From contig NC_016027.1 of the NCBI RefSeq assembly GCF_000182745.2, forward strand, positions 2,951,001 through 3,015,000: a stretch of DNA of 64,000 nucleotides, given 5' to 3'. Shown here one piece after another: positions 10,314 to 50,188 of this stretch. Numbering within the stretch: the first letter of the stretch is position 1; each line of letters starts with the position of its first letter. The notes below the pieces were generated by a model. It did no database searches. It was given only the letters and a program-made list of their open reading frames with translations, and had not been told where the DNA came from. This stretch comes from Komagataeibacter medellinensis NBRC 3288. Lineage in GTDB: Bacteria; Pseudomonadota; Alphaproteobacteria; Acetobacterales; Acetobacteraceae. The position numbers and the translations under genes are program-made.

Positions 10314-10352
10314 AAAAAAAGACCGGCACGGGAAACCGTGCCGGTCTTTTTT
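10314..10352. terminator. Bidirectional terminator between cyoD and fdxA
   Basis: A perfect 10-bp stem (10321-10330 with 10337-10346), loop GGAAAC, is flanked by AAAAAAA on the left and TTTTTT on the right. It can end cyoABCD on the plus strand and fdxA on the minus strand. Confidence 0.92.
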
Positions 10353-10387
10353 ATAAGGAAGCCTGCTTTCGCAGCAGAAGGCCGGGA

Positions 10388-10720: not shown

Positions 10721-10909
10721 CGCCTATCTCCGATCATTATTTGTTCGGCCTGCGGCAATAGGCCCGGCCATTGAAAGAGATGAGGCGCCACATGGGGCAT
10801 GACCTCATCGGGAATGGCGGAAGATATGAGAGTGTTTTCGGGCCGTGGCAAGCCCAAGACGGCAGGTTATGCACAATCAGTGCCAGCATTGGCGGCAGTG
10901 CCACAATAT

Positions 10910-11206: not shown

Positions 11207-11211
11207 GGAGT

Positions 11212-35166: not shown

Positions 35167-35334
35167 GGGCGCTGCGCCAGGGGGCTGTCGGCGCGCTCAT
35201 TCTGCGATGGGGTCATTGCCTTTTTTGGTGAGGTGACAAAACCCGGCCTGTCTCCATATTATGATGCATGTGTAAAATGAATGGCTGTTCCGGCTGTCTG
35301 CCTTGAGGGGGGTGGGGCGGTCCTGTGGCCTACT

Positions 35335-36852
35335 ATGTTTAAGGGAACAGAATTGACGGGGATCAGACACGCCGTTCGTTTCTATGTCGGGAACGAATGC
35401 CATACGCTGGCGGATATTCCGCCTACCCGCACGCTGCTGGACTGGCTACGTGAGGAGAAGGGCCGTACCGGCACCAAGGAAGGCTGTAACGAAGGCGATT
35501 GCGGTGCCTGCACCGTGCTGGTGGTGCGACTGGAAGGGGACCGCCTGGTCTGGCGCGCGGTCAATGCATGCATTCAGTTCGTGTGCATGCTTGATGGCGC
35601 GCAGGTGCTGACCATCGAGGATATCCGCGCCCCCGATGGTACACTTCATCCGGTGCAGCAGGCCATGGTGGACCATCATGGATCGCAATGCGGCTTCTGC
35701 ACGCCGGGTTTCGTCATGTCCATGGTCGCAGGCCGCAAGGCGGCGGGGCTGGCGCAGGATGAGCGTGGCATTGATGACATGCTGGCGGGCAACCTGTGCC
35801 GCTGCACGGGTTATGCGCCCATCGTACGCGCCATGCGCCATGCCATGGAAGCCGGCCCCGACCATTTTGATGCCATGGCGCAGGATATGGCGGACCGCCT
35901 GATGGGCTTGCGTGACGGGGCCACTGTAGAGGTCAGCGGACCCGCGGGTAGCCTGAGCATTCCCGCGGGCGTGGACGGACTGGCGGCGACCATGCAGGCG
36001 CATCCCGATGCCCGCATCGTGGCGGGGGCGACGGATGTGGGGCTGTGGGTAACCAAGGGTCTACGTGTGTTGCCGCATGTCGTCTCCATTGGTCAGATCC
36101 CGGAACTGCGGCGCATCGAACGCGGGCCGGATGGGCTGTATGTCGGCGCTGCCGTGACATGGCAGGAAGCCCGTTCGGCGCTGGCCGCCGTGTTGCCCCA
36201 GCCCAATGGGGAAGTGTTCCGCCGCATCGGTTCAGTGCAGGTGCGTAATGCGGGCACGGTGTGCGGCAACATTGCCAACGGCTCGCCCATTGGTGACGGG
36301 CCGCCGGTGCTGATCGCAGCCAATGCCCGGCTGCATCTGCGGTGTGGCGACGTGCGGCGCAGCATGGCGCTGGAGGATTTCTTCATCGATTACGGCAGGC
36401 AGGACCGCGCGCCGGGCGAGTTTGTGGAAGGAGTGACCATTCCCGTGCCGGGACCGGATACGGTCATCCGGGCATGGAAGGTGTCCAAGCGGTTCGATCA
36501 GGATATTTCGGCCATTCTGGGGGCATTCTCGCTCACGCTGGCGGCTGATGGCAGCATTGCTGATATCCGCATCGCCTTTGGCGGCATGGCGGCTACCCCA
36601 CGCCGCGCCAACCGGGTGGAAGCGGCTATGCGGGGCCAGATGTGGAATGAAACCACGCTGGAGGCTGCGCGTAACGCAATGGCAGAGGATTTCAGCCCCA
36701 TTACCGACATGCGGGCAAGTGACTGGTACCGCCGCACGGTTGCCGCCAACCTGCTCACACGCCTGTATGCCGATTGCGGGCCGGAGGCGGCACGCGCGCC
36801 GATCAGCGTGCAGGCCACCTACGCGGGCCACGGAGAACATGCCCATGGCTGA
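35335..36852 (+). CDS. xdhA: Xanthine dehydrogenase small subunit (2Fe-2S and FAD domains)
   Basis: 505-residue subunit that carries electrons from the molybdenum site to FAD and NAD. The N-terminal 2Fe-2S motifs are CNEGDCGAC (about 45-53), then QCGFC and LCRCTGY of the second cluster. The FAD-binding domain (ARIVAGATDVGL near 226) and the CO-dehydrogenase flavoprotein C-terminal domain follow. I choose ATG 35335; a TTG at 35353 has a better AAGGGA site and is possible. Start of the purine-degradation gene run: its stop overlaps the xdhB start. Confidence 0.95.
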   Translation: MFKGTELTGIRHAVRFYVGNECHTLADIPPTRTLLDWLREEKGRTGTKEGCNEGDCGACTVLVVRLEGDRLVWRAVNACIQFVCMLDGAQVLTIEDIRAPDGTLHPVQQAMVDHHGSQCGFCTPGFVMSMVAGRKAAGLAQDERGIDDMLAGNLCRCTGYAPIVRAMRHAMEAGPDHFDAMAQDMADRLMGLRDGATVEVSGPAGSLSIPAGVDGLAATMQAHPDARIVAGATDVGLWVTKGLRVLPHVVSIGQIPELRRIERGPDGLYVGAAVTWQEARSALAAVLPQPNGEVFRRIGSVQVRNAGTVCGNIANGSPIGDGPPVLIAANARLHLRCGDVRRSMALEDFFIDYGRQDRAPGEFVEGVTIPVPGPDTVIRAWKVSKRFDQDISAILGAFSLTLAADGSIADIRIAFGGMAATPRRANRVEAAMRGQMWNETTLEAARNAMAEDFSPITDMRASDWYRRTVAANLLTRLYADCGPEAARAPISVQATYAGHGEHAHG

Positions 36853-39214
36853 TGCAAACATGCCTGCCACCACTGCAATCCCCGCAGTCGTGGATACGAT
36901 CGTGCCCGGCGGGGCCTCGTGCAGTCTGCGACATGAAAGTGCCGTTATGCATGTGCAGGGGAGTGCCAGCTATATTGATGACCTGCCCGAACCCCGTGGC
37001 ACGCTACACCTTGTGCCCGGCCTGAGCACGCGCGCGCATGCCCGCGTGCTGTTTATGGACCTGGCTGCCGTGCGGCAGGCCGAAGGGGTGGTGGGGGTTT
37101 ATACGGCTGCCGATATTCCCGGTGACAACCAGATCAGCCCGGTGGGCAAGGGGGACGAGCCGCTACTGGCGACCGATCTGGTCGAATTTTATGGCCAGCC
37201 GCTGTTTGTCGTGGCCGCCACCACGCGCGGGGCCGCACGCCGGGCAGTGCTGCTGGCGAAGGTGGAATATGAAGACCTGCCCGCCATCGTGAACGTGGCG
37301 CAGGCCCGCGCGGCAGGCAGCCCGCTGGTCTGGCGGCCCATGGAAATGAAGCGTGGTGATGCACAGGCTGGTCTTGCCCACGCACCACGCCGCCTGTCGG
37401 GCCGCATGACCGTGGGCGGGCAGGAACATTTCTATCTTGAAGGCCAGATTGCGCTGGCTCATCCCGGTGAGGAAGGGGAGATGCATGTCATCTCCTCCAC
37501 CCAGCACCCGACCGAGACCCAGCATATGATCGCCCATGTGCTGGACCGGCCCGCCAACCTCATCACCACCGAGGTGCGGCGCATGGGCGGCGGCTTTGGT
37601 GGCAAGGAAACGCAGGCCAATGCCTGCGCCTGCCTTGCTGCCCTTGTCGCCGACCGCACGGGGCGCGCGGCCAAGATGCGCCTTGACCGTGATGATGACA
37701 TGACCATGACCGGCAAGCGGCATGACTTCGTGATTGATTACGATGTCGGCTTTACCGATGAGGGCCGGATCATTGCAGTGGACATGGTGCTGGCCGCGCG
37801 CTGTGGCTGGTCGGCTGACCTGTCCGGTCCGGTGATCGACCGTGCGCTGTTCCACGCCGATAACGCCTATTTCTATCCCGATGTGCGGCTGCGTTCGGAA
37901 CCGCTGCGTACCAATACCCAGTCCAATACTGCTTATCGCGGTTTTGGCGGCCCGCAGGGCATTGTAGCTGCCGAACGCGTGATCGAGGAAGTGGCGTTTG
38001 CAACCGGCCTCGACCCGCTGGAAGTCAGGCTGCGCAACGTGTACGGCACGCATGACCGTAACGTAACCCCCTACAACATGGTGGTGGAGGACTCGATCAC
38101 CCACGACCTGCTGCCGCAACTGGCCCATCGCTGCCAGTACGCACAGCGGCGCGACGCCACGCGGGTATTCAATGCAGGCAGTCGTTACCTGCGGCGCGGC
38201 ATTGCCATAACGCCGGTCAAGTTCGGCATCTCGTTCACCGCCACCCATTACAACCAGGCCGGTGCGCTGGTGCATGTCTATACCGATGGTTCGGTGCAGG
38301 TGAACCACGGCGGCACCGAAATGGGGCAGGGCCTGCATACCAAGATGGTGCAGGTGGTCATGCGCGAACTGGGGCTGGGCACCGACCGCGTGCGCATTAC
38401 CGCCACCACCACGGGCAAGGTGCCCAATACCTCGGCCACCGCCGCCTCCAGCGGGGCGGACCTCAATGGCATGGCTGTGCTGGACGCGGTGCGCCGCATC
38501 AAGCGCAGGCTGGTGGAATTCGCGGCCGGTCACTGGAATGTGGGGGAGGATGAAGTCCGCTTCATGCCCGATGGCGTGCATGTGGGCCATAAGGTGGTCG
38601 CGTTCTCCCACCTGACGCGGCAGGCCTATTTTGCGCGTGTGTCCATGTCCGCCAACGGGTTTTACAAGACTCCCAAAATCTCATGGAATGGCGATACGGG
38701 ACAGGGGCGTCCGTTCTATTATTTTGCCTATGGCGCGGCGTGTTCGGAAGTGGTGGTGGACCTGCTGACGGGCGAGATGAAGATCGAGCGTGTCGATATC
38801 CTGCATGATGCGGGCGAGTCGTTGAACCCGGTGCTCGATATCGGCCAGATCGAGGGCGGGTTCGTGCAGGGGGCGGGCTGGCTGACATGTGAGGAACTGG
38901 TGTGGGACAGTGCCGGCCGCCTGCGCACCCACGCCCCCAGTACCTACAAGATCCCTGCCTGCTCTGACCGTCCACGCATATTCAATGTGAACCTGCTGGA
39001 AAACGCACCGAACCGCGAGCACACCATCTTTCGCTCCAAGGCGGTGGGAGAGCCGCCTTTCGTTCACGGGGTCTCGGTGCTGCAGGCCATATCGGATGCG
39101 CTGGCCAGCCTTGATGGCTACCGCACCTGCCCCCGGCTGGACGCACCAGCCACGCCGGAGATGATCCTGCGCACGGTGGAACGTATGCGCCACGGCCCGC
39201 CACCTGCCGCCTGA
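36845..39214 (+). CDS. xdhB: Xanthine dehydrogenase large molybdopterin subunit
   Basis: 789-residue catalytic subunit oxidising hypoxanthine to xanthine and urate at a Mo-cofactor. Seen are GGGFGGKETQ near residue 250, YRGFGGPQG, EMGQGLHTKM and the active-site Glu in VGEPPFVHG close to the C-terminus. ATG 36845 lies 9 nt after GGAG and overlaps the xdhA stop; the frame extends to 36548 inside xdhA, which I disregard. Confidence 0.96.
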   Translation: MADANMPATTAIPAVVDTIVPGGASCSLRHESAVMHVQGSASYIDDLPEPRGTLHLVPGLSTRAHARVLFMDLAAVRQAEGVVGVYTAADIPGDNQISPVGKGDEPLLATDLVEFYGQPLFVVAATTRGAARRAVLLAKVEYEDLPAIVNVAQARAAGSPLVWRPMEMKRGDAQAGLAHAPRRLSGRMTVGGQEHFYLEGQIALAHPGEEGEMHVISSTQHPTETQHMIAHVLDRPANLITTEVRRMGGGFGGKETQANACACLAALVADRTGRAAKMRLDRDDDMTMTGKRHDFVIDYDVGFTDEGRIIAVDMVLAARCGWSADLSGPVIDRALFHADNAYFYPDVRLRSEPLRTNTQSNTAYRGFGGPQGIVAAERVIEEVAFATGLDPLEVRLRNVYGTHDRNVTPYNMVVEDSITHDLLPQLAHRCQYAQRRDATRVFNAGSRYLRRGIAITPVKFGISFTATHYNQAGALVHVYTDGSVQVNHGGTEMGQGLHTKMVQVVMRELGLGTDRVRITATTTGKVPNTSATAASSGADLNGMAVLDAVRRIKRRLVEFAAGHWNVGEDEVRFMPDGVHVGHKVVAFSHLTRQAYFARVSMSANGFYKTPKISWNGDTGQGRPFYYFAYGAACSEVVVDLLTGEMKIERVDILHDAGESLNPVLDIGQIEGGFVQGAGWLTCEELVWDSAGRLRTHAPSTYKIPACSDRPRIFNVNLLENAPNREHTIFRSKAVGEPPFVHGVSVLQAISDALASLDGYRTCPRLDAPATPEMILRTVERMRHGPPPAA

Positions 39215-39217
39215 ACC

Positions 39218-40051
39218 ATGGACATGCAGATGCGGGCGGATCTGGTGCGCTGGCGGCTGGAAGGGCAGGCCGTGGCACGGATCAGCGTATCCGGCGCGCG
39301 TGGTTCCACCCCGCGTGAGGCCGGGACGTTCATGCTGCTGACGCAGGCCCAGCAGTCGGGCACGATTGGCGGCGGAGATCTGGAATGGAACGCGATCCAC
39401 CACGCCCGCGCCCTGCTGCGCGGCGGCGGCGCGCGCGTGGAGCAGCGCATCAGCCTTGGTGGTAATTCGGGCCAGTGCTGCGGGGGGGAAGTCGTGCTTG
39501 TGCTTGATGTGCCTTGTGCTGATGAACTGGACCGGATACTGGCCCGGCTTGAAGACATGCGCCGCCACCAGCCGCTGCTTTTGCTGTTTGGTGCGGGGCA
39601 TGTCGGCCGCGCGCTGGCCCATGTGCTGGCCCCCCTGCCGCTGCGGCTGGCATGGTCTGATTCACGCCCGCATGAATTCGGTGCCGTTATTCCCCATGGC
39701 GTTATGGTGTATGATGATGGAGACTGGGAGCAGCTGGTAGCCAGTGCACCACCCAACTCCGGCGCACTGGTGCTGACCCAGAGCCATGCGCTCGATAGCC
39801 TGATCGTGGCGTCCATTCTTGAACGGGGCGATTTCCGTTATGTCGGGCTGATCGGCTCGGCCACCAAACGCCGGCGGTTCGAGGCTGGATTTCGCCACAT
39901 CGGCCTGTCGGAGGCGCGTATCGCCACCATGGTCTGCCCGATAGGCGACCAGGGCGTGCGCGACAAGCGTCCCGCCGTGATCGCGGCACTGGTGGCGGCG
40001 GAAATTGTGACCCGTTTCCTGCACCCGGTGCAGGCGGAAGGCACTGGATAA
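39218..40051 (+). CDS. xdhC: XdhC-type molybdenum cofactor insertion protein
   Basis: 277-residue accessory protein that binds Mo-cofactor, supports its sulfuration and delivers it to XdhB. The XdhC/CoxI N-terminal domain (STPREAGTFML, GTIGGGDLEW) and the C-terminal Rossmann domain (LFGAGHVGRALA near 126) are both present. It starts 3 bp after xdhB. Confidence 0.94.
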   Translation: MDMQMRADLVRWRLEGQAVARISVSGARGSTPREAGTFMLLTQAQQSGTIGGGDLEWNAIHHARALLRGGGARVEQRISLGGNSGQCCGGEVVLVLDVPCADELDRILARLEDMRRHQPLLLLFGAGHVGRALAHVLAPLPLRLAWSDSRPHEFGAVIPHGVMVYDDGDWEQLVASAPPNSGALVLTQSHALDSLIVASILERGDFRYVGLIGSATKRRRFEAGFRHIGLSEARIATMVCPIGDQGVRDKRPAVIAALVAAEIVTRFLHPVQAEGTG

Positions 40052-40068
40052 GGAGATGACACACGCTC

Positions 40069-41025
40069 ATGAATGATCCGCTTTCCCGCACCCCGCGCAT
40101 GATGCGCCTGCATGCGCGTGGCATTTCGTATTTCAATGCCGTGCGGGAATGCCGCTCCATCCGCGAGGCGGCGCGCAGGCTCAATGTCACGCCCTCCGCC
40201 CTGACCCGGCAGCTTGCACAGATGGAGGCCGAGATCGGTGCCCCCCTGTTCGACCGCCTGCCCGAGGGCATGGTGCTGACGGAGGTGGGCACCATCATGG
40301 CCCGTCATATCGTGACCGTAATGCAGGATGCCGCCCGGACGGAGGAGCAGATCAACGCCCTGTCCGGTCGCCATGACGGGCGGCTGCGCATCATGGCGGT
40401 GGAGGGGATCGCGGGGCAGTTGATGCCTGCCCTGCTGGAGCGGATACTGAGTGCCTTTCCCACTGTTGAACTGCATGTGGAGGTAGGCGCGCCCAAGACC
40501 ATCGTCTCCGCCCTGCAGGATGGGCGGGTGGATCTGGGCATTGCTTTTTCGCTTGCACTCTATCCCGAACTGCGGCGGGTGGCGGTGGCGCATTTTCCCG
40601 TCGGTGCGATCGTGCGGCCCGACCATCCACTTGCAGGTCTGCGCACGGTCACGGTGGAGGAATGCATGTCCTACCGCCTGATCCTGCCCACGCGCACGCT
40701 CTCGCTCTACCGGGTGATGGAACCGATGCTGCGCCCGTGGCAGGACCGGCTGAAGGTGGTGCTGCATACCGGGTCGATCGAACTGACCAACCGCATGGTG
40801 CAGGCGGGGGCAGGGCTTGCCTTCCAGTCCCCGCTGGCGCTGGAGGTCCGGCCCGGGCAGGAACGTCTGTGCCATGTCCCCCTGCGTGATACCCGTGCGG
40901 TAACCGACCTCGGCGCTTATGTGCGTGAATCCCGCTGGCTGCCGCCATTGCTTGAAACCGTGATCGAGGAACTGCGCCAGGAATTGCGCCGCGTACAGGG
41001 GGTAGGGGACGAGAAGGTGGTCTGA
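40069..41025 (+). CDS. LysR-family transcriptional regulator
   Basis: 318-residue LysR regulator. The N-terminal winged helix-turn-helix is seen in SIREAARRLNVTPSALTRQL (about 28-47), followed by an effector-binding domain. It is 17 bp downstream of xdhC and 175 bp upstream of the flavin monooxygenase gene, with a good promoter candidate in that gap. It probably controls the purine-degradation genes with a purine intermediate as coinducer; this is inferred from position. Confidence 0.93.
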   Translation: MNDPLSRTPRMMRLHARGISYFNAVRECRSIREAARRLNVTPSALTRQLAQMEAEIGAPLFDRLPEGMVLTEVGTIMARHIVTVMQDAARTEEQINALSGRHDGRLRIMAVEGIAGQLMPALLERILSAFPTVELHVEVGAPKTIVSALQDGRVDLGIAFSLALYPELRRVAVAHFPVGAIVRPDHPLAGLRTVTVEECMSYRLILPTRTLSLYRVMEPMLRPWQDRLKVVLHTGSIELTNRMVQAGAGLAFQSPLALEVRPGQERLCHVPLRDTRAVTDLGAYVRESRWLPPLLETVIEELRQELRRVQGVGDEKVV

Positions 41026-41040
41026 CTTCGTGTTTCATTT

Positions 41041-41070
41041 TTGGCAACACAACAGTCAGATCATTATACT
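41041..41070 (+). promoter_or_regulatory. Sigma-70-type promoter candidate for the monooxygenase-HpxXYW operon
   Basis: TTGGCA (41041-41046) and TATACT (41065-41070) are separated by 18 bp and lie 130 bp upstream of the chosen monooxygenase start, in the longest gap of the cluster. An AAAC-N8-GTTT inverted repeat follows at 41076-41091 and may be an operator. Confidence 0.5.
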
Positions 41071-41200
41071 GGACGAAACACCCGGTCGTTTGATTAGATT
41101 TACCCAACATGGTGCGGTTGGGGACAATACCGCTATGGCGTCGGGGGACGCCATGCGGGCTGCATCAGCAAACACTGGAAAAAAAGACGGGGACCCGCAG

Positions 41201-42658
41201 ATGGATACCAACACGCAGTCCGATACCGGGGCGCAGGGCGGGCTTGCAGCATTGGATGCGGCGGTGCGCCGTGATCTGGACATCATCCGCTATCCGCGCA
41301 AGGAATGGGTTCCCGCCATGGAGCGTGATGGCCAGCGCGTGCTCGATGTTGCCATTATCGGCGCGGGGCAGGGCGGGCTTGCCACCGCCTTTGCCCTCAA
41401 GCGTAACAATATTACCAATGTGCGGATCTTTGACCGTGCATCCAGGGGTGGTGAAGGTCCGTGGGTGACATTCGCGCGCATGATCACGCTGCGCACGCCC
41501 AAATACGTGACCGGCCCCGATCTGGGTGTGCCCTCGCTCACGCCGCGTTCGTGGTACGAAGCGCAGTATGGTGCCCCCGCATGGGAAAAGCTGGACAAGA
41601 TCCCGCGCGGGCAATGGCAGGCCTATCTGGACTGGTATCGCGATATCCTCGACCTGCCGGTTGCCAATGATCATGATTTTCAGGGCGTGACATGGGAGGG
41701 TGGCCTGCTGCGCCTGACCTTTGCCCGCCCCGATGGCACGACGCATGTGCATTATGCCCGCAAGCTGGTGCTGGCTACGGGTATTGAAGGTTGTGGGGCG
41801 TGGAATGTGCCCGATTTCATCCGTGAAAGCCTCCCGCGTGCGCGTTATGCCCATACATCGGAAGCCATTGATTTTGCGGCGCTGAAGGGCAGGCGCATCG
41901 GTGTGCTGGGGGCCGGGGCATCCGCCTTCGATAACGCCGCCACCGCCCTGGAAGAAGGGGTGGGCAGTGTTACGCTGTGCCTGCGGCGCAAGGAAATCCC
42001 GTCCATCAACCCGTATCGCTGGATGGAGAATACCGGCTTCCTCGCCTATTATCCCGCTTTGTCCGATGACCTGCGCTGGGGCTTCATGCGCCGGATATTC
42101 GAACTGAACCAGCCACCGCCCCAGGATACGTTCTGGCGCTGCCGCAAGCACGCCAGCTTCTCCTACCGTACCGGCTGCCCGTGGACGGCGGTGCGGATGG
42201 AGGGTGACGAGATTGTGGTGGAGTCGCCCACCGGCGAAATGCGCTTTGACTTTGTGATTGTTGGCACCGGCTTTACAACCGACCTTGCACGCCGGGCGGA
42301 AACAAGGTCGTTCGCGGCCTCGGTCGCGCTGTGGGGAGATCATTATACCGCACCCGCAGGCTCTGAAAGTGCGGTGTTGGAAAGCTATCCCTATCTTGGC
42401 GCCAATTACCAGTTCCTGCCGCGCAGCAAGGATGATCCGCTGGCGCCGATGCTGGCAAACATTCACAATTTTACCTTCTCGGCCACACCCAGCATGGGAC
42501 TTTCGGGGGCGTCGATCAGTGGCATGCGCTTTGGCGTGGAGCGTCTGGCCCACGGGCTGGGGCGTGACCTGTATGTAGCCGATGGCCAGAAGCACCTGGA
42601 AAGTTTGCTGGCCTATAACGTGCCGGAACTGGTCAGTCTCGACCCACCTGTTGCATGA
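41201..42658 (+). CDS. Flavin-dependent monooxygenase (FMO/BVMO-like), candidate purine-pathway oxidase
   Basis: 485-residue flavoprotein with an FAD-binding motif GAGQGG (54-59), an ATG-type linker (ATGIEG, 192-197), a second dinucleotide motif GAGASA for NADPH (237-242) and a C-terminal GTGF motif. This two-fold architecture is that of class B flavin monooxygenases, different from HpxO-type urate hydroxylases. I use ATG 41201; the frame is open to 41030. It is the first gene after the LysR regulator and precedes the HpxX/Y/W genes. It could be the missing urate-oxidising enzyme or act on a later ureido compound; neither is shown. Confidence 0.82.
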   Translation: MDTNTQSDTGAQGGLAALDAAVRRDLDIIRYPRKEWVPAMERDGQRVLDVAIIGAGQGGLATAFALKRNNITNVRIFDRASRGGEGPWVTFARMITLRTPKYVTGPDLGVPSLTPRSWYEAQYGAPAWEKLDKIPRGQWQAYLDWYRDILDLPVANDHDFQGVTWEGGLLRLTFARPDGTTHVHYARKLVLATGIEGCGAWNVPDFIRESLPRARYAHTSEAIDFAALKGRRIGVLGAGASAFDNAATALEEGVGSVTLCLRRKEIPSINPYRWMENTGFLAYYPALSDDLRWGFMRRIFELNQPPPQDTFWRCRKHASFSYRTGCPWTAVRMEGDEIVVESPTGEMRFDFVIVGTGFTTDLARRAETRSFAASVALWGDHYTAPAGSESAVLESYPYLGANYQFLPRSKDDPLAPMLANIHNFTFSATPSMGLSGASISGMRFGVERLAHGLGRDLYVADGQKHLESLLAYNVPELVSLDPPVA

Positions 42659-42700
42659 TGCATCCCGGATAGATTTATCCATTCGGGAGATGATGAACAG

Positions 42701-42934
42701 ATGAGCAGTGCTGCAAGCCTTTCCCCGCCCGCGCCCGGTAATGGCGCAGGCGGACATGATGACCGTAAGGGTCCACCCGTATCCGACATGGCGCGGATGA
42801 TCGGGCTGTCCATTCCAGCGGCAAGCCTGCCCGATGTCGTAACGAATGCCGTGCTGCTGCAGGGCTATGCCGACATGCTTGCAGGTTTCGTACTGCCCGA
42901 TACGTGTGAACCAGCCTATGAGTACACGCCATGA
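42701..42934 (+). CDS. DUF4089 small protein (HpxX/AtzG-like)
   Basis: 77-residue protein whose C-terminal half matches the DUF4089 pattern: a helical segment LPDVVTNAVLLQGYADMLAGF, then PDTCEPAYEYTP. AtzG of this family is an obligate small subunit of the AtzE amidase, and HpxX is its homologue in the Klebsiella purine cluster. The N-terminal 25 residues are Pro/Gly-rich and low-complexity. The stop overlaps the amidase start (ATGA), which supports complex formation. Confidence 0.85.
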   Translation: MSSAASLSPPAPGNGAGGHDDRKGPPVSDMARMIGLSIPAASLPDVVTNAVLLQGYADMLAGFVLPDTCEPAYEYTP

Positions 42935-44301
42935 GCGGTGATACCCAGGCCATGGGTGCGGCCTTTGCCATTGCGGCCGACGTAAAGGCTGGCCGCCGCA
43001 CCGCCGTCTCGGTCGTGACCGGGGTGATCGCGGATATCGAGGCGCGGGACACGCGCTTCAACAGCGTAACCCGGATCCTTGGCCCCGCTGCTGTGGCGCA
43101 GGCGGAGGAAGTGGACAGGGCCGTGGCGGCAGGCCGCGACCCTGGCCCGCTGGCGGGCGTGCCCTTTGGCGTGAAAGACCTGTTTGACGTGTGCGGTGAA
43201 GTCACGACCGCAGGCTCCATCGTGCTGCGTGACAACCTGCCCGCAACACAGGATGCCACCGTGGTGGCCCGCCTGCGCGCGGCAGGGGCCGTGCCGGTGG
43301 CCACGCTGAACATGGATGAGTTCGCCTACGGTTTTTCCACCGAGAACGCGCATACCGGCACCACGCGCAACCCGCATGATCCGACACGCCTGGTCGGCGG
43401 TTCGTCGGGCGGGTCGGCGGCTTCGGTCGCGGCGGGGATGCTGCCGTTCACGCTGGGATCGGATACCAATGGCTCGATCCGTGTCCCGTCCGCGCTGTGC
43501 GGGGTGTGGGGGATCAAGCCCACTTATGGGCAGATGCCGCTGCAGGGGGTCTATCCGTTCGTGGCCAGCCTTGATGTGGTTGGCCCGATGGCGGTCACGG
43601 TTCAGGATCTTCAGGCTGTCTATACCATCATGGCGGGCCGGAGCCTGACGCTGCCTGCCGTGGGGGATGTGCGTGTTGCGCGCCTTGGCGGCTGGTTTGC
43701 CCATAACATCAGTGCGGAAATGGCAGCCGGACTGGATGGGGTCATGGCGCATCTTGGCAGTGGCAGGGTGATCGAACTGCCTGAAGTCGCGCGCGCGCGG
43801 GCATCCGCCTTCCTGATCAGTGCAGCCGAAGGGGGCAACCTGCACCTGCCGCGCCTGCGCTTGCGTTCCATGCAGTATGATCCGGCAACCCGTTCACGAC
43901 TTATGGCCGGGGCGATTCTGCCTGCCGCCACTTTCGTGCAGGCGCAGCGCTTCCGTCGCTGGTTCCGCGCACAGGTGCATGAAGCACTGGCGCAGGCCGA
44001 TGTGCTGATTGCCCCCACCACCGTGGGGATCGCACCGCGTATTGACCAGCCCACCATCATGCTGGATGGCAAAAGCGTATCGGCCCGGGCCAACCTTGGC
44101 ATTTTTACCCAGCCGATCAGCCTGACGGGCCTGCCTGTGCTTGCGGTGCCGCTTGCAGTAGATGGCATGCCGCTTGGCATCCAGCTTGTGGGTGCCCCCG
44201 GTGGCGAGGACCGGCTTTTTGCCGTAGCGGCCGAACTCCAGCGCGCGGGACTGGCGGCCTGCAGGCCGCTGGATGCAGGTTACGCGCGAAAGGACGCCTG
44301 A
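42931..44301 (+). CDS. Amidase-signature hydrolase (HpxY/AtzE-like)
   Basis: 456-residue amidase with a Ser-cisSer-Lys triad: Lys in FGVKDLFDV (near 72), and the Gly/Ser-rich signature VGGSSGGSAASVAAG (near 155-169) followed by GSDTNGSIRVP. It follows its DUF4089 partner with a 4-bp overlap and abuts the next gene, as in AtzG-AtzE and HpxX-HpxY pairs. AtzE hydrolyses 1-carboxybiuret; because oxalurate has a similar ureido-acid shape, oxalurate hydrolysis is a plausible activity here. Confidence 0.88.
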   Translation: MSGDTQAMGAAFAIAADVKAGRRTAVSVVTGVIADIEARDTRFNSVTRILGPAAVAQAEEVDRAVAAGRDPGPLAGVPFGVKDLFDVCGEVTTAGSIVLRDNLPATQDATVVARLRAAGAVPVATLNMDEFAYGFSTENAHTGTTRNPHDPTRLVGGSSGGSAASVAAGMLPFTLGSDTNGSIRVPSALCGVWGIKPTYGQMPLQGVYPFVASLDVVGPMAVTVQDLQAVYTIMAGRSLTLPAVGDVRVARLGGWFAHNISAEMAAGLDGVMAHLGSGRVIELPEVARARASAFLISAAEGGNLHLPRLRLRSMQYDPATRSRLMAGAILPAATFVQAQRFRRWFRAQVHEALAQADVLIAPTTVGIAPRIDQPTIMLDGKSVSARANLGIFTQPISLTGLPVLAVPLAVDGMPLGIQLVGAPGGEDRLFAVAAELQRAGLAACRPLDAGYARKDA

Positions 44302-45894
44302 ATGCTCAATACCCCACGCTCATGCCGGGGGATGGTCACATCCCCCCACCATCTGGCCAGCCAGGCTGGGCTGGACGTGCTCAAGGCCGGTGGCACCGCG
44401 CTGGAGGCCGCCGTGGCAACGGCGGCCGCCCTTGCCGTGGTCTATCCGCACATGACCGGTATTGGCGGGGATGCCTTCTGGCTCACCATGTGGCCCGATG
44501 GCCGCGTGGAAACCATAGATGCCTGCGGGGCGGCGGCGGGGCGGGCCGATGCGGGGTTCTACCGTGCAGCCGGGCTGGACGCCATTCCGTGGCGTGGCCC
44601 GCTTGCGGCCAATACGGTGGCGGGCACCGTATCTGGCTGGAACATGGCGCTGGCATGGAGCCACGCCATGGCGCCGGGCCTGCCGCTGGGGCGCGTGCTG
44701 CGTGATGCGCTGTACTATGCCGAACAGGGTGCGCCCGTAACCGCAAGTGCTGCCGAACTGACAGCCCGGAAAGCCGACGAACTGCGCGATGTGCCGGGTT
44801 TTGCTGCACAGTTCATGCCCGGTGGCCGCCTGCCACAGGTGGGCGATATCCTGCATAACCCCCGCCTTGCCGGCACGCTGCGCCAGTTGGCGGATCAGGG
44901 GCTGGACAGTTTCTACCGTGGCAAGGTGGCGCGCGAACTGGCCGCTGACCTGGCCGATCTGGGCAGCCCGCTTACGCTTGCGGATCTACAGGCCCATCGC
45001 GCCAGCCACCAGCCCGCACTGCATGCCCGTATTCATGGGGCAGACCTTTACAACATGGCGCCCCCCACGCAGGGCGTGGCCTCACTGCTGATCCTGGCCC
45101 TGTTCGACCGGCTGCGCGCGGGGCAGGTGGATGATTTCGATTACCTGCATGGTCTGGTGGAAGCAACCAAGCAGGCCTTCCGCTATCGTGACACCCATGT
45201 GGGCGATCCCGCCTACATGACCGTGCAGGCGCAGGACATTCTTGATGACCGCAAGGCGCTGGATCGTATGGCAGCCAGCATCGACCCCAACAGGGCGGCA
45301 CCGTGGCCATGGCCATCACAGGCGGGGGATACGGTCTGGCTGGGCGTGATCGATTCTGACGGGCTGGCCGTAAGCATGATCCAGAGCCTGTATTTTGAAT
45401 ACGGCTCGGGCATCGTGCTGCCGCGCACCGGCGTGGTCTGGCAGAACCGTGGCACCAGCTTCGGCCTTGACCCGCAGGGGTGGAACGGCCTGCAACCAGG
45501 ACGCAAGCCCTTCCATACCCTCAACCCCGCCGGTGCCCGACTGGATGACGGGCGCACCATGGTTTACGGCACCATGGGTGGTGAGGGGCAGCCACAGACG
45601 CAGGCGGCCCTCTTTACCCGCTATGCCCGTTACGGCGTACCGCTGCAACAGGCGGTTACCGCGCCGCGCTGGCTGCTGGGCCGGACCTGGGGCGAGGCCA
45701 GTGTGAGCCTGAAATACGAGGACCGCTTCAACCCCGAAGTTATCGCCCGCATGCAGGCGGCTGGTCATCAGATGGAACGGGTGGAGGCATTTTCCTCCAT
45801 CATGGGGCATGCCGGTGCGCTGGTGCGCCACCCGTCCGGCCTGCTCGAAGGGGCGAGTGATCCCCGTAGTGATGGAAGTGTGGCAGCATGGTAG
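44302..45894 (+). CDS. Oxamate amidohydrolase-like Ntn hydrolase (HpxW, gamma-glutamyltransferase family)
   Basis: 530-residue member of the gamma-glutamyltransferase-like Ntn hydrolases. The N-terminal part (SPHHLASQAGLDVLKAGG, GIGGDAFWL) is typical. The likely autoprocessing Thr is in AGDTVWLGV near residue 350, giving large and small subunits. Signatures TMGGEGQPQTQ and SFSSIMGH-type sequences of HpxW follow. HpxW of Klebsiella hydrolyses oxamate to oxalate and ammonia at the end of urate degradation. The start codon directly follows the amidase stop. No signal peptide is visible, unlike secreted GGTs, supporting a cytosolic role. Confidence 0.88.
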   Translation: MLNTPRSCRGMVTSPHHLASQAGLDVLKAGGTALEAAVATAAALAVVYPHMTGIGGDAFWLTMWPDGRVETIDACGAAAGRADAGFYRAAGLDAIPWRGPLAANTVAGTVSGWNMALAWSHAMAPGLPLGRVLRDALYYAEQGAPVTASAAELTARKADELRDVPGFAAQFMPGGRLPQVGDILHNPRLAGTLRQLADQGLDSFYRGKVARELAADLADLGSPLTLADLQAHRASHQPALHARIHGADLYNMAPPTQGVASLLILALFDRLRAGQVDDFDYLHGLVEATKQAFRYRDTHVGDPAYMTVQAQDILDDRKALDRMAASIDPNRAAPWPWPSQAGDTVWLGVIDSDGLAVSMIQSLYFEYGSGIVLPRTGVVWQNRGTSFGLDPQGWNGLQPGRKPFHTLNPAGARLDDGRTMVYGTMGGEGQPQTQAALFTRYARYGVPLQQAVTAPRWLLGRTWGEASVSLKYEDRFNPEVIARMQAAGHQMERVEAFSSIMGHAGALVRHPSGLLEGASDPRSDGSVAAW

Positions 45895-47159
45895 CCATGA
45901 TGGAAACTCTTGATATCCCTTCGGGCGAGCGCGCCATTGCCCGCTGCGCTGAACTGGGGCGCGCGCCATATTCGGACATGGAAGGCGGGTTGTTCCGGCC
46001 CTATCTCGGCCCGGCTTACCGCGCCACGTGCGAAAAACTATCCCAGTGGATGGCGCAGGCGGGCATGAGCACGCGCATGGATGCGGCTGGCAACCTTGTG
46101 GGCCGGTATGAAGGACTGGTCCCCAATGCGCCGGTGGTACTGCTGGGCTCGCATATCGACAGCGTGCGTGATGGCGGCTTCTACGATGGCATGCTGGGCG
46201 TGATCCTGAGCATCGAGACGGTGGCGTATTTTGCCCGCGCGGGCAAACGCTTCCCCTTCGCGCTGGAAGTCATCGGGTTTGGGGATGAGGAAGGGTCGCG
46301 CTTTCCGACCGGCATGCTGACTTCCCACGCCGTGGCAGGCGTGCTGAAGGCACCCGATCCGGCCATGCCTGACTGGGCCGGGACCGCAACGCTGGCGGGC
46401 GCGCTGGAAGGCTTCGGGCTGGATGTGGGGCGAATGCATGCCGCATCCCGCAAGGGCGACCCGGTCGTGGCCTATGTTGAAGCCCATATAGAACAGGGCC
46501 CGGCGCTGGAGGCCGAGGAGCGCCCGCTGGGCGTGGTCAGCGCCATTGCGGCCCAGCAGCGTTACAGCCTTGTCCTGCGTGGTATGGCGGGACATGCGGG
46601 CACGGTGGCCATGGCGCTGCGGCGCGACGCGCTGGCTGGTGCGGCCGAGATCATTCTTGCCGCCGAGCGGGTCGGGCGCGCGGGTACGGACGGGCTGGTG
46701 GCCACGGTCGGTTCTCTCGATGTGGTGCCGGGGGCGGCCAATGTGGTGCCGGGCGAGGTGGTGATGAGCCTTGATGTCCGTGCCGGTACCAATGCCGCGC
46801 GCGATATGGCCGTGGCGGAGATACTGGATATCGCCCGCCAGATCTGCCGCGCGCGCGGGCTGGAAATCGACATGACCCTCAAGCAGGACCTTGATGCCAC
46901 GCCATGTGACGCCAGGCTGACCGCACTCATGGAACAGGCCGCAGGCAGTGTTACCGGCATGCCCGCACCCCTGCTGGTCAGCGGGGCAGGACATGATGCG
47001 ATGATCATGGCGCACCTGGTCCCCGTTTCCATGCTGTTCATCCGTTGCGCGGGAGGGATCAGCCACAACCCCGCCGAATCCGTGACGCAGGCGGATACGG
47101 AGGCGGCCCTGCGTACCATGACGACCTTTACCGGACTTCTTGAAAGACATTTTGGATGA
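45888..47159 (+). CDS. allC: Allantoate amidohydrolase (M20 family)
   Basis: 423-residue metal-dependent hydrolase, expected to turn allantoate into ureidoglycine, CO2 and ammonia. The di-metal ligands are visible: LGSHIDSVRDGGFYDG near residues 85-100, GDEEGSRFPTG and EAHIEQGP. The family also includes ureidoglycolate hydrolases and N-carbamoyl amino-acid hydrolases, but the location with puuE and a pucG-type gene supports allantoate. ATG 45888 overlaps the end of the HpxW-like gene; ATG 45897 is possible. Confidence 0.92.
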   Translation: MVAMMETLDIPSGERAIARCAELGRAPYSDMEGGLFRPYLGPAYRATCEKLSQWMAQAGMSTRMDAAGNLVGRYEGLVPNAPVVLLGSHIDSVRDGGFYDGMLGVILSIETVAYFARAGKRFPFALEVIGFGDEEGSRFPTGMLTSHAVAGVLKAPDPAMPDWAGTATLAGALEGFGLDVGRMHAASRKGDPVVAYVEAHIEQGPALEAEERPLGVVSAIAAQQRYSLVLRGMAGHAGTVAMALRRDALAGAAEIILAAERVGRAGTDGLVATVGSLDVVPGAANVVPGEVVMSLDVRAGTNAARDMAVAEILDIARQICRARGLEIDMTLKQDLDATPCDARLTALMEQAAGSVTGMPAPLLVSGAGHDAMIMAHLVPVSMLFIRCAGGISHNPAESVTQADTEAALRTMTTFTGLLERHFG

Positions 47160-48385
47160 CCCAGACTTTCTACGGCCAGATCAACCCTCCCGCCCGGCTG
47201 CTGATGGGGCCGGGGCCGGTCAACGCCCATCCGCGCGTGCTGCGCGCCATGGCAGCCGACATGCTGGGACAGTTCGATCCCGAGATGACGCAATACATGA
47301 ACCAGACGATGGACCTCTACCGTCAGGTATTCATGACCGAAAACCGCTGGACCCTGCTGGTCGATGGTACGGCGCGCGCGGGGATTGAGGCGGCACTCGT
47401 CTCGCTGGTCGAACCGGGCATGAAGCTGTTGATCGTGCGTGCGGGTCGCTTTGGCCTGCTGCTGTCCGAAATTGCGAGCCGCATCGGGGCCGAGATCGCA
47501 ACGCTGGACATTCCGTGGGGGGAAGTGGCCACGCTGGAACAGGTCGAAGCCGCGATCAAGGCCCACCGTCCGCAGGTTCTGGCCTGCATCCATGGCGATA
47601 CCTCCACCACCATGGCCCAGCCGCTTGATGGTGTGGGCGCGCTGTGCCGACAGTATGATGTGCTGTCCTATGTCGATGCCACGGCAACACTGGGCGGCAT
47701 GCCGGTTGCGACTGACCGCTGGGGCGTGGATGTGGTCAGCGGTGGCCTACAGAAATGCATGGGTGGGCCGCCGGGTTCCGCGCCCATCACCATTTCCGAC
47801 CGGGCGGCGGCGCATATCTTCGCCCGTCGGCATGTGGAAGCCGGTATCCGTGGCAGTGATACGACCGATGGGGTGCGCGCGCGCATTCCGTCCAACTATC
47901 TCGATCTGGCCATGATCATGGATTACTGGTCCGAAAAGCGGCTCAACCACCATACCGAGGCAACCAGCATGCTGTACGCCGCGCGTGAAGCCGCGCGCAT
48001 CATGCTGGAAGAAGGGCTGGAAGCCCGCTTCGCCCGGCATGCCAGCGCTTCGAAGGCCATGTGCGCGGGCCTGCGCGCCATGGGGCTGGACCTGTTTGGC
48101 AGCGATGCGCACCGCATGACCAACGTGACGGGCGTGTACATTCCCGAAGGCATTGATGGCGAGCGCGTGCGCACCCGCATGCGTGAGGATTTCGAGATCG
48201 AGATCGGCTCCGCCTTCGGCCCGCTACAGGGCAAAATCTGGCGCATCGGCGCCATGGGCTACAATGCCGAAAAGCACAAGGTGCTGCTTACGCTGGGTGC
48301 GCTGGAAGCCGTACTGCGCGCCGAAGGTCACCGGTTTGGCGCAGGCGCGGGCGTGGATGCAGGCCTTGCGGCTTATTGCGCGTGA
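47156..48385 (+). CDS. pucG: Class V aminotransferase, (S)-ureidoglycine--glyoxylate type
   Basis: 409-residue PLP enzyme of the alanine-glyoxylate/serine-pyruvate family. The PLP Lys is in SGGLQKCMGGPPG near residue 200; the N-terminal LLMGPGPVNAHPRVL is typical. In purine clusters such an enzyme (PucG/HpxJ) converts ureidoglycine and glyoxylate to oxalurate and glycine. It overlaps allC by 4 bp, and its stop codon ends 14 nt before the puuE start, supporting that role over general serine-glyoxylate transamination. Confidence 0.9.
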   Translation: MTQTFYGQINPPARLLMGPGPVNAHPRVLRAMAADMLGQFDPEMTQYMNQTMDLYRQVFMTENRWTLLVDGTARAGIEAALVSLVEPGMKLLIVRAGRFGLLLSEIASRIGAEIATLDIPWGEVATLEQVEAAIKAHRPQVLACIHGDTSTTMAQPLDGVGALCRQYDVLSYVDATATLGGMPVATDRWGVDVVSGGLQKCMGGPPGSAPITISDRAAAHIFARRHVEAGIRGSDTTDGVRARIPSNYLDLAMIMDYWSEKRLNHHTEATSMLYAAREAARIMLEEGLEARFARHASASKAMCAGLRAMGLDLFGSDAHRMTNVTGVYIPEGIDGERVRTRMREDFEIEIGSAFGPLQGKIWRIGAMGYNAEKHKVLLTLGALEAVLRAEGHRFGAGAGVDAGLAAYCA

Positions 48386-48399
48386 TGGGGGGCAGGTTC

Positions 48400-49311
48400 A
48401 TGTCTGAATCCACGCCCTATCCGCGTGATCTTGTCGGCTATGCAGGCAACCCGCCCGCTGCGCAGTGGCCCGGTGGCGCGCGCATCGCGGTACAGTTCGT
48501 GATCAATTACGAGGAGGGAGCCGAGAATTCGGTCCTGCATGGTGATCGCGGATCGGAGGCTTTCCTGTCTGAAATGGTGGGGGCCCAGTCCATTCCCGGT
48601 GCACGCGCCATTGCGATGGAAAGTCTGTATGAATACGGATCTCGTGCCGGGTTCTGGCGGCTGCATCGTATCTTTACCCAGCGCAGGCAGCCGCTTACGG
48701 TGTTTGGCGTAGCGGCCGCCATGGCGCGCAACCCACAGGCCGTGGCCGCCATGAAGGAAGCGGGGTGGGAGATTGCCTCCCACGGATTGCGCTGGATTGA
48801 TTACCAGCATGTGCCCGAAGCGGTGGAGCGGGCGCATATTCACGAATGCATTGCGCTGCATGCCAAATTGACCGGTTCGCGCCCGCTGGGCTGGTATCAG
48901 GGCCGCACCAGTCCCAATACCGCCCGCCTGATCGCGGAAGAAGGCGGCTTTGTCTATGACGCGGATTCCTATGCCGATGACCTGCCGTATTATGACCGCA
49001 GCCATGGTCGTGCGCAGTTGATTGTGCCGTACACGCTGGATGTGAATGACATGCGCTTTGTGGCCCTGAACGGCTTTACCGAAGGCGAGCAGTTCTTCAC
49101 CTACCTGCGCGACACGTTTGATGAACTGTATGAGGAAGGGGCCGACAGGCCGCGCATGATGTCGGTTGGCCTGCACTGCCGTATTGCGGGCCGTCCGGGG
49201 CGTGCGCGGGCGGTGGCGCGCTTCCTTGATTATATTGCCGCGCGCGAGAAAGTATGGGTGGCAACCCGGCTTGATATCGCACGCCACTGGCAGAAGGTGC
49301 ACCCGGCATGA
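48400..49311 (+). CDS. puuE: Allantoinase, polysaccharide-deacetylase fold (PuuE)
   Basis: 303-residue NodB-fold, metal-independent type allantoinase that opens allantoin to allantoate. PuuE features include RDLVGYAGNPP near the N-terminus, FVINYEEGAENSVLHGD, EYGSRAGFWRL and EIASHGLRWIDYQ. The start at ATG 48400 has a GGGGGCAGG site; ATG 48385 overlapping the pucG stop is an alternative. Its presence means the divergent dihydropyrimidinase-like protein upstream is not needed as allantoinase. It overlaps uraD by 4 bp. Confidence 0.95.
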   Translation: MSESTPYPRDLVGYAGNPPAAQWPGGARIAVQFVINYEEGAENSVLHGDRGSEAFLSEMVGAQSIPGARAIAMESLYEYGSRAGFWRLHRIFTQRRQPLTVFGVAAAMARNPQAVAAMKEAGWEIASHGLRWIDYQHVPEAVERAHIHECIALHAKLTGSRPLGWYQGRTSPNTARLIAEEGGFVYDADSYADDLPYYDRSHGRAQLIVPYTLDVNDMRFVALNGFTEGEQFFTYLRDTFDELYEEGADRPRMMSVGLHCRIAGRPGRARAVARFLDYIAAREKVWVATRLDIARHWQKVHPA

Positions 49312-49835
49312 GCGGCGTGATGGACCGGGTCAATACATTGTCTGCCGTGCAGTTTGTCGAACTGTTTGGCCCGATATACGAACACTCCCCCTGGATTGCC
49401 CAGCGCGCGCATGCCCATGCTCCTTTTGCCGATATGGATGCCATGCTGGCGGCCATGCGGCATGAACTGGGCCAGGCGGCGGATAGGGAACGGATGGCCC
49501 TGATCCGCGCCCATCCCGAACTGGCGCAACGCATGGGTGTGGACCCGACACTGACATCGGCTTCCGCTACCGAGCAGGCTTCCGCCGGACTGGACCGGTT
49601 GACACCAGATGAATTCACGACCTTTCGTGCCCTGAATGACGCCTATGCGGCCAAATTCGGTATCCCGTTCATCATCTGCGTGCGGCGGTCGGATAAGGAC
49701 GGCATCCTGAACGGGATGCGCACCCGGATGGAAAATACACCGGAAGCCGAACAGCAGGCTGCCTTGCGTGAAATCAACAAGATTGCCGCCCTGCGGCTGG
49801 CGGATGTGCTGGCGCGGCTGGAGCAGGAACCATGA
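49308..49835 (+). CDS. uraD: OHCU decarboxylase
   Basis: 175-residue 2-oxo-4-hydroxy-4-carboxy-5-ureidoimidazoline decarboxylase, which makes (S)-allantoin after UraH. Motifs seen: FGPIYEHSPWIAQRAHAHAPF (catalytic His), MALIRAHPELAQRM, SAGLDRLTPDEF and LNDAYAAKFGIPFIICVR. Overlaps both puuE and uraH by 4 bp, so the three are translationally coupled. Confidence 0.96.
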   Translation: MSGVMDRVNTLSAVQFVELFGPIYEHSPWIAQRAHAHAPFADMDAMLAAMRHELGQAADRERMALIRAHPELAQRMGVDPTLTSASATEQASAGLDRLTPDEFTTFRALNDAYAAKFGIPFIICVRRSDKDGILNGMRTRMENTPEAEQQAALREINKIAALRLADVLARLEQEP

Positions 49836-50188
49836 GCACCCTTTCCACCCATGTTCTCGACCTTGTATCGGGCAGGCCCGCCGCTGGCATGACGATCAGT
49901 CTGTGGATGGGGCAGGAGTGCCTGTTCCGTGGCGTGACCAACGCCGATGGCCGTTGCCCTGAACTGAGCCAGCATACAGGCGAGATGCAGGCCGGTTCTT
50001 ACCGGCTGGAATTTGCCGTGGCGGCGTATTTCCGCGCGCGCGATGTCGCACTGTCTGATCCGCCGTTTCTTGATATCGTACCGATTGCCTTTGGCATGGC
50101 GCAGGTGGCACCGGGGGAAAAGGGCGGTCATTACCATGTGCCACTGCTGGTCTCGCCCTATGGGTTCTCGACCTATCGGGGTAGCTGA
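49832..50188 (+). CDS. uraH: 5-hydroxyisourate hydrolase
   Basis: 118-residue transthyretin-related protein that hydrolyses 5-hydroxyisourate to OHCU. The N-terminal STHVLDLVSGRPAAGM, the TNADGR segment and the C-terminal YHVPLLVSPYGFSTYRGS (ending in YRGS) are diagnostic. Last gene of the cluster. No signal peptide, so cytosolic. Its presence shows that 5-hydroxyisourate is made in this organism, although no recognised urate oxidase lies nearby. Confidence 0.97.
   Translation: MSTLSTHVLDLVSGRPAAGMTISLWMGQECLFRGVTNADGRCPELSQHTGEMQAGSYRLEFAVAAYFRARDVALSDPPFLDIVPIAFGMAQVAPGEKGGHYHVPLLVSPYGFSTYRGS

What the first reader, a model, noticed from the sequence alone, without database searches (positions are those of the whole stretch)
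41201..42658. FMO-type flavoprotein may be the missing urate-oxidising enzyme
Genes for every step around urate are present: xdhABC to make it, and uraH, uraD, puuE, allC and a pucG-type gene after 5-hydroxyisourate. No urate oxidase (uricase), HpxO or PuuD is visible. A flavin monooxygenase of a different architecture, with two dinucleotide folds (motifs at 54-59 and 237-242), sits in the middle of the cluster behind the LysR gene and a promoter. If it hydroxylates urate it would be a new, nonorthologous urate oxidase. It could also act on a ureido intermediate.
Basis: partly seen in the sequence, partly recalled or inferred. Interest (0 to 1): 0.75.

Follow-up and report, generated by a model that had tools for sequence, protein, structure and literature searches.

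The report
HpyO-type flavin urate hydroxylase gene
The gene very probably makes the flavin enzyme that starts urate breakdown in this bacterium, but this type of enzyme (HpyO) was already described from Xanthomonas in 2012, so it is a new member of a known kind and not a new urate oxidase.

Summary
41201-42658 (+) encodes a 485-aa flavoprotein with two dinucleotide motifs, inside an xdhABC-lysR-[FMO]-atzG/atzE-GGT-allC-pucG-puuE-uraD-uraH cluster. The genome has no uricase, no PuuD and no HpxO over cut-off.

The functional guess is well supported. In 150 genomes of the order, 64 carry the protein (59% identity or more). All 64 have UraD and none has PuuD; 7 of the 11 other UraD genomes have PuuD. 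Homologues lie beside uraD/uraH in Niveispirillum, Novosphingobium, Sphingobium, Xanthomonas and on a Priestia plasmid.

"New, nonorthologous" fails. The Xanthomonas homologue (about 45%) follows uraD in genomes without PuuD, uricase or HpxO over cut-off, so it is almost certainly HpyO, the FAD/NAD(P)H urate hydroxylase (Michiel et al. 2012, not readable here). Eight residues, chosen after the fact, are in 39 of 39 urate-linked and 3 of 44 unlinked family members.

Open: activity, which was not tested, and whether the window's clade and the Xanthomonas clade share one urate-hydroxylating ancestor (not rejected, p-AU 0.26, but not shown). New member of a known kind.

The parts
41201..42658 (+). 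HpyO-type FAD/NAD(P)H urate hydroxylase (the finding), 485 aa
33802..35166 (+). dihydropyrimidinase/allantoinase-family amidohydrolase at the cluster's upstream edge; role uncertain
   Evidence: best model below its cut-off
35281..36852 (+). xdhA, xanthine dehydrogenase small subunit
   Evidence: TIGR02963, 633 bits, cut-off 467
36845..39214 (+). xdhB, xanthine dehydrogenase molybdopterin subunit (start codon inferred; 36908-39214 was scanned)
   Evidence: TIGR02965, 1296 bits, cut-off 849.5
39218..40051 (+). xdhC, xanthine dehydrogenase accessory protein
   Evidence: TIGR02964, 283 bits, cut-off 161.6
40069..41025 (+). LysR-family regulator
   Evidence: PF00126, PF03466
41041..41070 (+). sigma-70-like promoter match TTGGCA-18-TATACT in front of the flavoprotein gene (weak)
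42701..42934 (+). AtzG-like small ORF (start codon uncertain; 42755-42931 was scanned), overlapping the start of the AtzE-family gene
   Evidence: PF13318, 34.6 bits, cut-off 24
42931..44301 (+). AtzE-family amidase
   Evidence: NF006631, 591 bits, cut-off 461
44302..45894 (+). gamma-glutamyltransferase-family hydrolase (HpxW-like by recall)
   Evidence: PF01019
45888..47159 (+). allantoate amidohydrolase-family gene (allC-like)
   Evidence: NF006775, 570 bits, cut-off 479
47156..48385 (+). class-V aminotransferase, pucG-type by position
   Evidence: PF00266; NCBIfam models only below cut-off
48376..49311 (+). puuE, allantoinase
   Evidence: TIGR03212, 541 bits, cut-off 424.6
49308..49835 (+). 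uraD, OHCU decarboxylase
   Evidence: TIGR03164, 189 bits, cut-off 96.25
49832..50188 (+). uraH, 5-hydroxyisourate hydrolase
   Evidence: TIGR02962, 111.5 bits, cut-off 87.45

Best explanation
The protein is an HpyO-type urate hydroxylase. It binds FAD and NAD(P)H, forms a reduced flavin that activates O2, and hydroxylates urate (made by XdhAB) at C5 to give 5-hydroxyisourate and water. UraH and UraD then turn this into (S)-allantoin, and PuuE, the AllC-like hydrolase and the PucG-type transaminase carry it further. The gene family, gene order, co-occurrence and absence of the other known urate oxidases are shown here. Substrate, cofactors and mechanism are inferred from those facts and from what is reported of HpyO.
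For: (1) In 150 genomes of the order, the 64 with a homologue of 59% identity or more all have UraD; 0 of 75 genomes without UraD have one (Fisher p 5e-31; genomes are related, so p overstates it). (2) Alternation with PuuD: 0 of 64 have PuuD, and 7 of the 11 other UraD genomes do. Uricase 0 of 150; HpxO over cut-off 0 of 150. (3) UraD starts within 15 kb in 53 of 64. Of the other 11, ten neighbourhoods were read (all but G128): UraH lies within about 2 kb in 4, other cluster genes in 5, none of the 13 window genes searched for in 1 (G045). (4) Adjacency elsewhere: Niveispirillum uraD-FMO-uraH; Novosphingobium puuE-(small ORF)-uraD-FMO-uraH; Sphingobium GGT-allC-pucG-puuE-uraD-FMO-uraH-xdhABC; Priestia plasmid permease-uraD-uraH-FMO. 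(5) Xanthomonas: of six named gamma-proteobacterial genomes, the four Xanthomonas have UraD and a P0001 homologue; the Stenotrophomonas and Luteimonas genomes have neither (best E 0.05 or no match). The homologue is 45-46% identical over residues 9-481 in three and split into pieces in X. phaseoli. The order allC-pucG-puuE-uraD-FMO-uraH is seen in the three regions read. PuuD, uricase and HpxO over cut-off are absent in 4 of 4. PMC4562309 says a urate oxidase not homologous to HpxO, named HpyO, was identified in Xanthomonas and uses FAD and NAD(P)H (passages read). (6) Eight residues (T99, T219, R273, M275, E276, N303, Q304, S440) are all present in 39 of 39 rows labelled urate-linked (one, G045, labelled by clade only) and in 3 of 44 unlinked rows (chosen after looking at the groups).
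Against: No activity, cofactor or structure was tested; the single-sequence AlphaFold model is useless (mean pLDDT 33.6). The HpyO paper is not held, so matching the Xanthomonas gene to HpyO rests on context. The family is large and much of it is not urate-linked: of 26 places matched outside the window's family in 398 genomes of the phylum, 20 were read and 0 had a UraD, UraH or PuuE gene within about 3 kb; some genomes of the order carry extra 39-45% copies beside the 59%+ one. The window's protein is as similar to Xanthomonas (45%) as to unlinked members (43-52%). The tree does not unite the urate-linked clades with support. Three UraD genomes in the order (G043, G048, G062) have neither this gene at 59% nor PuuD. 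On the Priestia plasmid another monooxygenase, annotated as styrene/indole monooxygenase family, lies about 0.7 kb upstream of the permease with one small gene between, and the Priestia chromosome was not searched for uricase.
Confidence: 0.9

Rival explanations
1. Same reaction, separate origin: the window's clade became a urate hydroxylase independently of the Xanthomonas HpyO clade, from the same pool of flavoproteins.
For: Three urate-linked groups (window type 26 rows, UraH-only type 7, Xanthomonas type 6) do not group together in the best tree, and 17 columns are fixed differently in the window and Xanthomonas groups.
Against: Holding all urate-linked rows as one clade is not rejected (p-AU 0.152 in the 60-row tree; 0.257 in the 83-row tree). 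Eight residues are shared by all three groups and rare elsewhere.
Confidence: 0.25
2. The flavoprotein hydroxylates another purine or a ureido intermediate and an unknown protein oxidises urate.
For: Family members outside the urate loci lie beside other transport and catabolic genes, so substrates probably differ in the family; one lies by molybdo-hydroxylase genes in Mesorhizobium.
Against: It is the only oxidoreductase in the Priestia permease-uraD-uraH-FMO run, though another annotated monooxygenase lies 0.7 kb upstream of that run; and it alternates with PuuD across the order.
Confidence: 0.06
3. It is a member of the HpxO (Klebsiella) family.
For: Both would be FAD/NAD(P)H urate hydroxylases (inference; no call supports membership).
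Against: NF033623 (HpxO) is not among the NCBIfam matches of P0001 at E 0.001, nor PF01494 among its Pfam matches. The protein has two nucleotide motifs and matches Pyr_redox_3, Lys_Orn_oxgnase, Pyr_redox_2 and NAD_binding_9 over cut-off.
Confidence: 0.01

Closest known systems
HpyO, FAD-dependent urate hydroxylase of Xanthomonas (Michiel et al. 2012; title and description seen only through citing papers)
   Same: Homologue at about 45% identity in four Xanthomonas genomes (split in one), directly after uraD; uraH follows in the three regions read; no PuuD, uricase or over-cut-off HpxO in those genomes; all eight signature residues in the two Xanthomonas rows of the tree
   Different: Separate group in the tree; in the window the gene sits behind a LysR gene and about 6.6 kb from uraD; activity not shown
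HpxO, FAD-dependent urate hydroxylase of Klebsiella
   Same: Proposed reaction and cosubstrates; similar gene partners (amidase and GGT-family genes, by recall of the hpx cluster)
   Different: Different protein family; no HpxO model match for P0001
PuuD, membrane cytochrome c urate oxidase (PMC4562309)
   Same: Fills the same step; present instead of this gene in 7 UraD genomes of the order
   Different: Unrelated membrane protein; absent from this genome
Cofactor-less uricase (Uox/PucL)
   Same: Same step
   Different: Unrelated fold; 0 of 150 genomes of the order

Membership tests
HpyO-type urate hydroxylase | Full-length sequence homology to the Xanthomonas urate-operon flavoprotein | tested here: met
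   45-46% identity over P0001 residues 9-481 in X. axonopodis, X. hortorum, X. bromi
HpyO-type urate hydroxylase | Encoded with uraH and uraD in genomes lacking uricase, HpxO and PuuD | tested here: met
   for the window's genome; for Xanthomonas
HpyO-type urate hydroxylase | Two dinucleotide-binding motifs (FAD and NAD(P)H) | tested here: met
   G54/G56/G59 and G237/G239/A242 invariant in 20 rows
HpyO-type urate hydroxylase | Falls in one clade with Xanthomonas HpyO to the exclusion of unlinked paralogues | tested here: inconclusive
   not recovered in the best tree, not rejected: p-AU 0.152 and 0.257
HpyO-type urate hydroxylase | The Xanthomonas gene used here is the gene named HpyO | tested here: inconclusive
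   only by context; original paper not held
HpyO-type urate hydroxylase | NAD(P)H- and O2-dependent conversion of urate to 5-hydroxyisourate | not testable with these tools
   needs an assay
HpxO | Match to NF033623 over 500 bits | tested here: not met
   not among the matches of P0001; best in the genome 83.6 bits, at another place
PuuD | Match to PF06181 | tested here: not met
Uricase (Uox) | Match to PF01014 | tested here: not met
Class B FMO / Baeyer-Villiger monooxygenases (solved structures) | Sequence match to FMO or BVMO structures | tested here: inconclusive
   profile matches are partial (best 8acs, E 9.7e-14, over 129 of 462 profile positions; several FMO and BVMO chains at weaker E)

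The most novel reading that the evidence does not exclude
Urate hydroxylation arose more than once inside one flavoprotein family: the type in the window's bacterial family and the Xanthomonas HpyO type are parallel recruitments that converged on the same eight residues, with a third, UraH-only lineage (7 genomes, no UraD or PuuD match) that handles the steps after urate oxidation differently.
Probability: 0.2. Interest if true: 0.45.

Novelty: new member of a known kind. Interest (0 to 1): 0.25.

Why it matters
It fills the one gap in this bacterium's purine pathway and suggests a rule for annotating HpyO: position next to uraD/uraH plus eight residues, since homology alone would mislabel the many paralogues. 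Among the 40 plasmid records listed of 338 with a match, the annotated homologues are called 'NAD(P)/FAD-dependent oxidoreductase' or 'hypothetical protein'. The Priestia plasmid run looks like a compact urate-to-allantoin module in a Gram-positive host.

Tried and rejected
A new urate oxidase family: rejected, because the Xanthomonas urate operon holds a full-length homologue. HpxO family: rejected on models. Structure of the protein: single-sequence AlphaFold gave mean pLDDT 33.6 and no fold search was made. Profile search of solved structures gave only partial hits. Phage records: no match. Literature searches: HpyO; urate, uricase, flavin monooxygenase, hydroxyisourate and Acetobacteraceae; urate hydroxylase with Xanthomonas; FAD-dependent urate hydroxylase; urate hydroxylase, allantoin and non-homologous isofunctional; purine catabolism, Gluconacetobacter and uric acid (no paper); hpxO, hpxW and oxamate. 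No listed title or abstract start describes this gene in the window's group; only openly licensed PMC papers are searched. Passages of PMC4562309, PMC10117892 and PMC5270733 were read; all other papers are search listings only.

Rows left out before counts: the X. phaseoli homologue (its match falls into pieces) and the G101 homologue (match too short) were not put in the trees. For the 83-row tree 13 rows similar to others were dropped, among them X. bromi, and four further window-type rows (L201-L204) were not added. In the first tree Sphingobium L163 was labelled unlinked by mistake; one search showed it is linked, and it was counted as linked from then on. 'Unlinked' means no UraD or UraH gene in the stretch read; three such loci (L145, L146, L164) do have PuuE-like and AtzE-like genes.

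Full report
What is there. The window carries a purine-degradation cluster on the + strand, 33802-50188. The finding is its sixth large gene, 41201-42658, 485 aa. Family models name the neighbours: XdhA and XdhC, XdhB, an AtzE-family amidase, allantoate amidohydrolase, PuuE, UraD and UraH, all over cut-off; a GGT-family gene and a class-V aminotransferase by Pfam; a LysR regulator. A small AtzG-like ORF overlaps the start of the AtzE-family gene. From the AtzE-family gene to uraH each gene overlaps or abuts the next. The flavoprotein matches Pyr_redox_3, Lys_Orn_oxgnase, Pyr_redox_2 and NAD_binding_9 over cut-off, and no NCBIfam model over cut-off.

Is a urate oxidase missing? Yes. In the window's genome (3.5 Mb, 99.98% complete) there is no PuuD and no uricase, and no HpxO over the curated cut-off; the best HpxO-like match has 83.6 bits against 500. 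The HpxO cut-off is strict, so a divergent HpxO cannot be wholly excluded, but nothing in this genome comes near it.

Co-occurrence. The same 150 genomes of the order were searched for the flavoprotein, UraD, PuuD, uricase and HpxO and tabulated. The flavoprotein at 59% identity or more is in 64 genomes, all of which have UraD; none of the 75 genomes without UraD has it. None of the 64 has PuuD. Of the 11 UraD genomes without it, 7 have PuuD (G009, G028, G029, G057, G068, G113, G149); G120 has a homologue at about 45% some 3.4 kb from uraD; G043, G048 and G062 have neither. G043 and G048 hold only a divergent UraD (33% to the window's). G062 is unexplained: it has a 35% homologue on another contig than uraD, with 3 of the 8 signature residues, and HpxO-like proteins up to 203 bits, below cut-off. 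The Fisher p of 5e-31 treats genomes as independent, which they are not; the alternation with PuuD is the stronger argument.

Position. UraD starts within 15 kb in 53 of the 64. Of the other 11, two have UraD far away on the same contig and nine on another contig. Ten of these 11 neighbourhoods were read (G128 was not): UraH within about 2 kb in G124, G061, G109 and G004; other cluster genes in G041, G135, G027, G146 and G076; none of the 13 window genes searched for in G045. A further group at 51-54% identity (7 genomes: G012, G022, G034, G042, G129, G130, G139) has UraH next to the flavoprotein in 7 of 7, while none of these genomes is among those with UraD or PuuD.

Beyond the order. Plasmid records give named cases: Niveispirillum (59%; uraD-FMO-uraH with overlapping genes), Novosphingobium PP1Y (45%; puuE, a small ORF, uraD, FMO, uraH), Sphingobium V4 (45%; whole cluster with xdhABC) and Priestia filamentosa (44%; permease-uraD-uraH-FMO). 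The last is a telling case: an importer, the two enzymes after 5-hydroxyisourate and one oxidoreductase in a row. Against it: a gene annotated as styrene/indole monooxygenase family lies about 0.7 kb upstream of the permease, past one small gene, and the Priestia chromosome was not searched.

Xanthomonas and HpyO. Six named genomes were reached; the four Xanthomonas have UraD and a P0001 homologue, while the Stenotrophomonas and Luteimonas genomes have neither. In three Xanthomonas the homologue covers P0001 residues 9-481 at 45-46% and touches or overlaps the end of uraD; in X. phaseoli the match is in pieces. The order allC-pucG-puuE-uraD-FMO-uraH is seen in the three regions read (X. hortorum, X. 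axonopodis, X. phaseoli). No PuuD, no uricase and no HpxO over cut-off is found in any of the four. PMC4562309 (passages read) states that a urate oxidase not homologous to HpxO, named HpyO, was identified in Xanthomonas and uses NAD(P)H and FAD. The flavoprotein between uraD and uraH is the obvious HpyO. The original paper (Michiel et al. 2012) is not held; my recall is that complementation of an Acinetobacter baylyi hpxO mutant showed the function.

How close to HpyO. The family is large, and elsewhere it is often not urate-linked. In the phylum sample 23 of 398 genomes have a member at E 1e-60 or better. All 23 also have UraD (141 of 398 do), but of 26 matched places outside the window's family 20 were read, and 0 had a UraD, UraH or PuuE gene within about 3 kb (less on one side for G261, where the contig ends). 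The three genomes G487, G527 and G379 and three second copies were not read. An 83-row tree shows three urate-linked groups: the window type (25 of 26 rows together at 99/98; Niveispirillum beside Mesorhizobium with weak support), the UraH-only type (100/100) and the Xanthomonas type (100/100), within a poorly resolved larger group that also holds unlinked clades. Holding all urate-linked rows as one clade is not rejected (p-AU 0.257; 0.152 in the 60-row tree). Twelve columns have the same residue in at least 85% of the window and Xanthomonas types and under 35% of unlinked rows; eight of them are also fixed in the UraH-only type, which did not enter those thresholds. All eight are present in 39 of 39 linked rows (G045 was labelled by clade only) and 3 of 44 unlinked rows. 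Those three form one clade; one of them, in Rhizobium ACO-34A, lies in a stretch with an annotated 8-oxoguanine deaminase (whose product is urate, by general knowledge), a PuuE-family gene at 45% and an amidase. Choosing the eight after the fact weakens this as evidence. It still suggests one shared substrate and an active-site patch around residues 273-276 and 303-304.

Mechanism. Shown: gene family, motifs, gene order, co-occurrence, absence of the known alternatives. Inferred: FAD and NAD(P)H as cofactors, flavin hydroperoxide chemistry, urate to 5-hydroxyisourate, and regulation by the LysR gene. No usable fold was obtained.

Verdict. A well-supported functional call in a known enzyme kind. 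Open questions are activity, the single or multiple origin of urate hydroxylation in the family, and what the UraH-only lineage does.

Noticed in passing
G012, G022, G034, G042, G129, G130, G139 (loci L185, L149, L186, L187, L148, L188, L189): Seven genomes with a flavoprotein of this family beside UraH but with no UraD (PF09349) or PuuD match; the OHCU step is either spontaneous or done by an unrecognised protein.
   Followed up: partly
order sample: 25 of the 32 genomes with a PuuD-domain match have no UraD match (two of the 25, G019 and G065, have only weak partial PuuD matches); 18 of the 25 are in three genera (g20, g5, g9).
   Followed up: no
L164 (Rhizobium sp. ACO-34A plasmid), L145 and L146: A clade of unlinked homologues carrying all eight urate-signature residues; at L164 it lies with an annotated 8-oxoguanine deaminase, a PuuE-family gene, an amidohydrolase and an amidase, possibly a different purine route.
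   Followed up: partly
L032 (Mesorhizobium loti plasmid), 9956-11422: A 51-52% homologue among molybdo-hydroxylase genes and other FAD monooxygenases, perhaps acting on another N-heterocycle; it has six of the eight signature residues.
   Followed up: no
G062, L141 and L142: Two uraD genes, one next to puuE and one between two uraH-like genes, but no PuuD, uricase, HpxO over cut-off or close HpyO relative in the genome.
   Followed up: partly
G043 (L143) and G048 (L144); low-scoring second UraD matches also in G056, G063, G123: A divergent UraD-like protein (33% to the window's in G043 and G048) with no other window gene found in the 15 kb read; its role is unclear.
   Followed up: no
phylum sample: All 23 of 398 genomes with a member of this flavoprotein family also have UraD, although the loci read outside the window's family are not linked to it.
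   Followed up: no
L042 (Priestia filamentosa plasmid p5), 6555-7733: A gene annotated as styrene/indole monooxygenase family lies just upstream of the plasmid's urate genes; whether it belongs to them is unknown.
   Followed up: no
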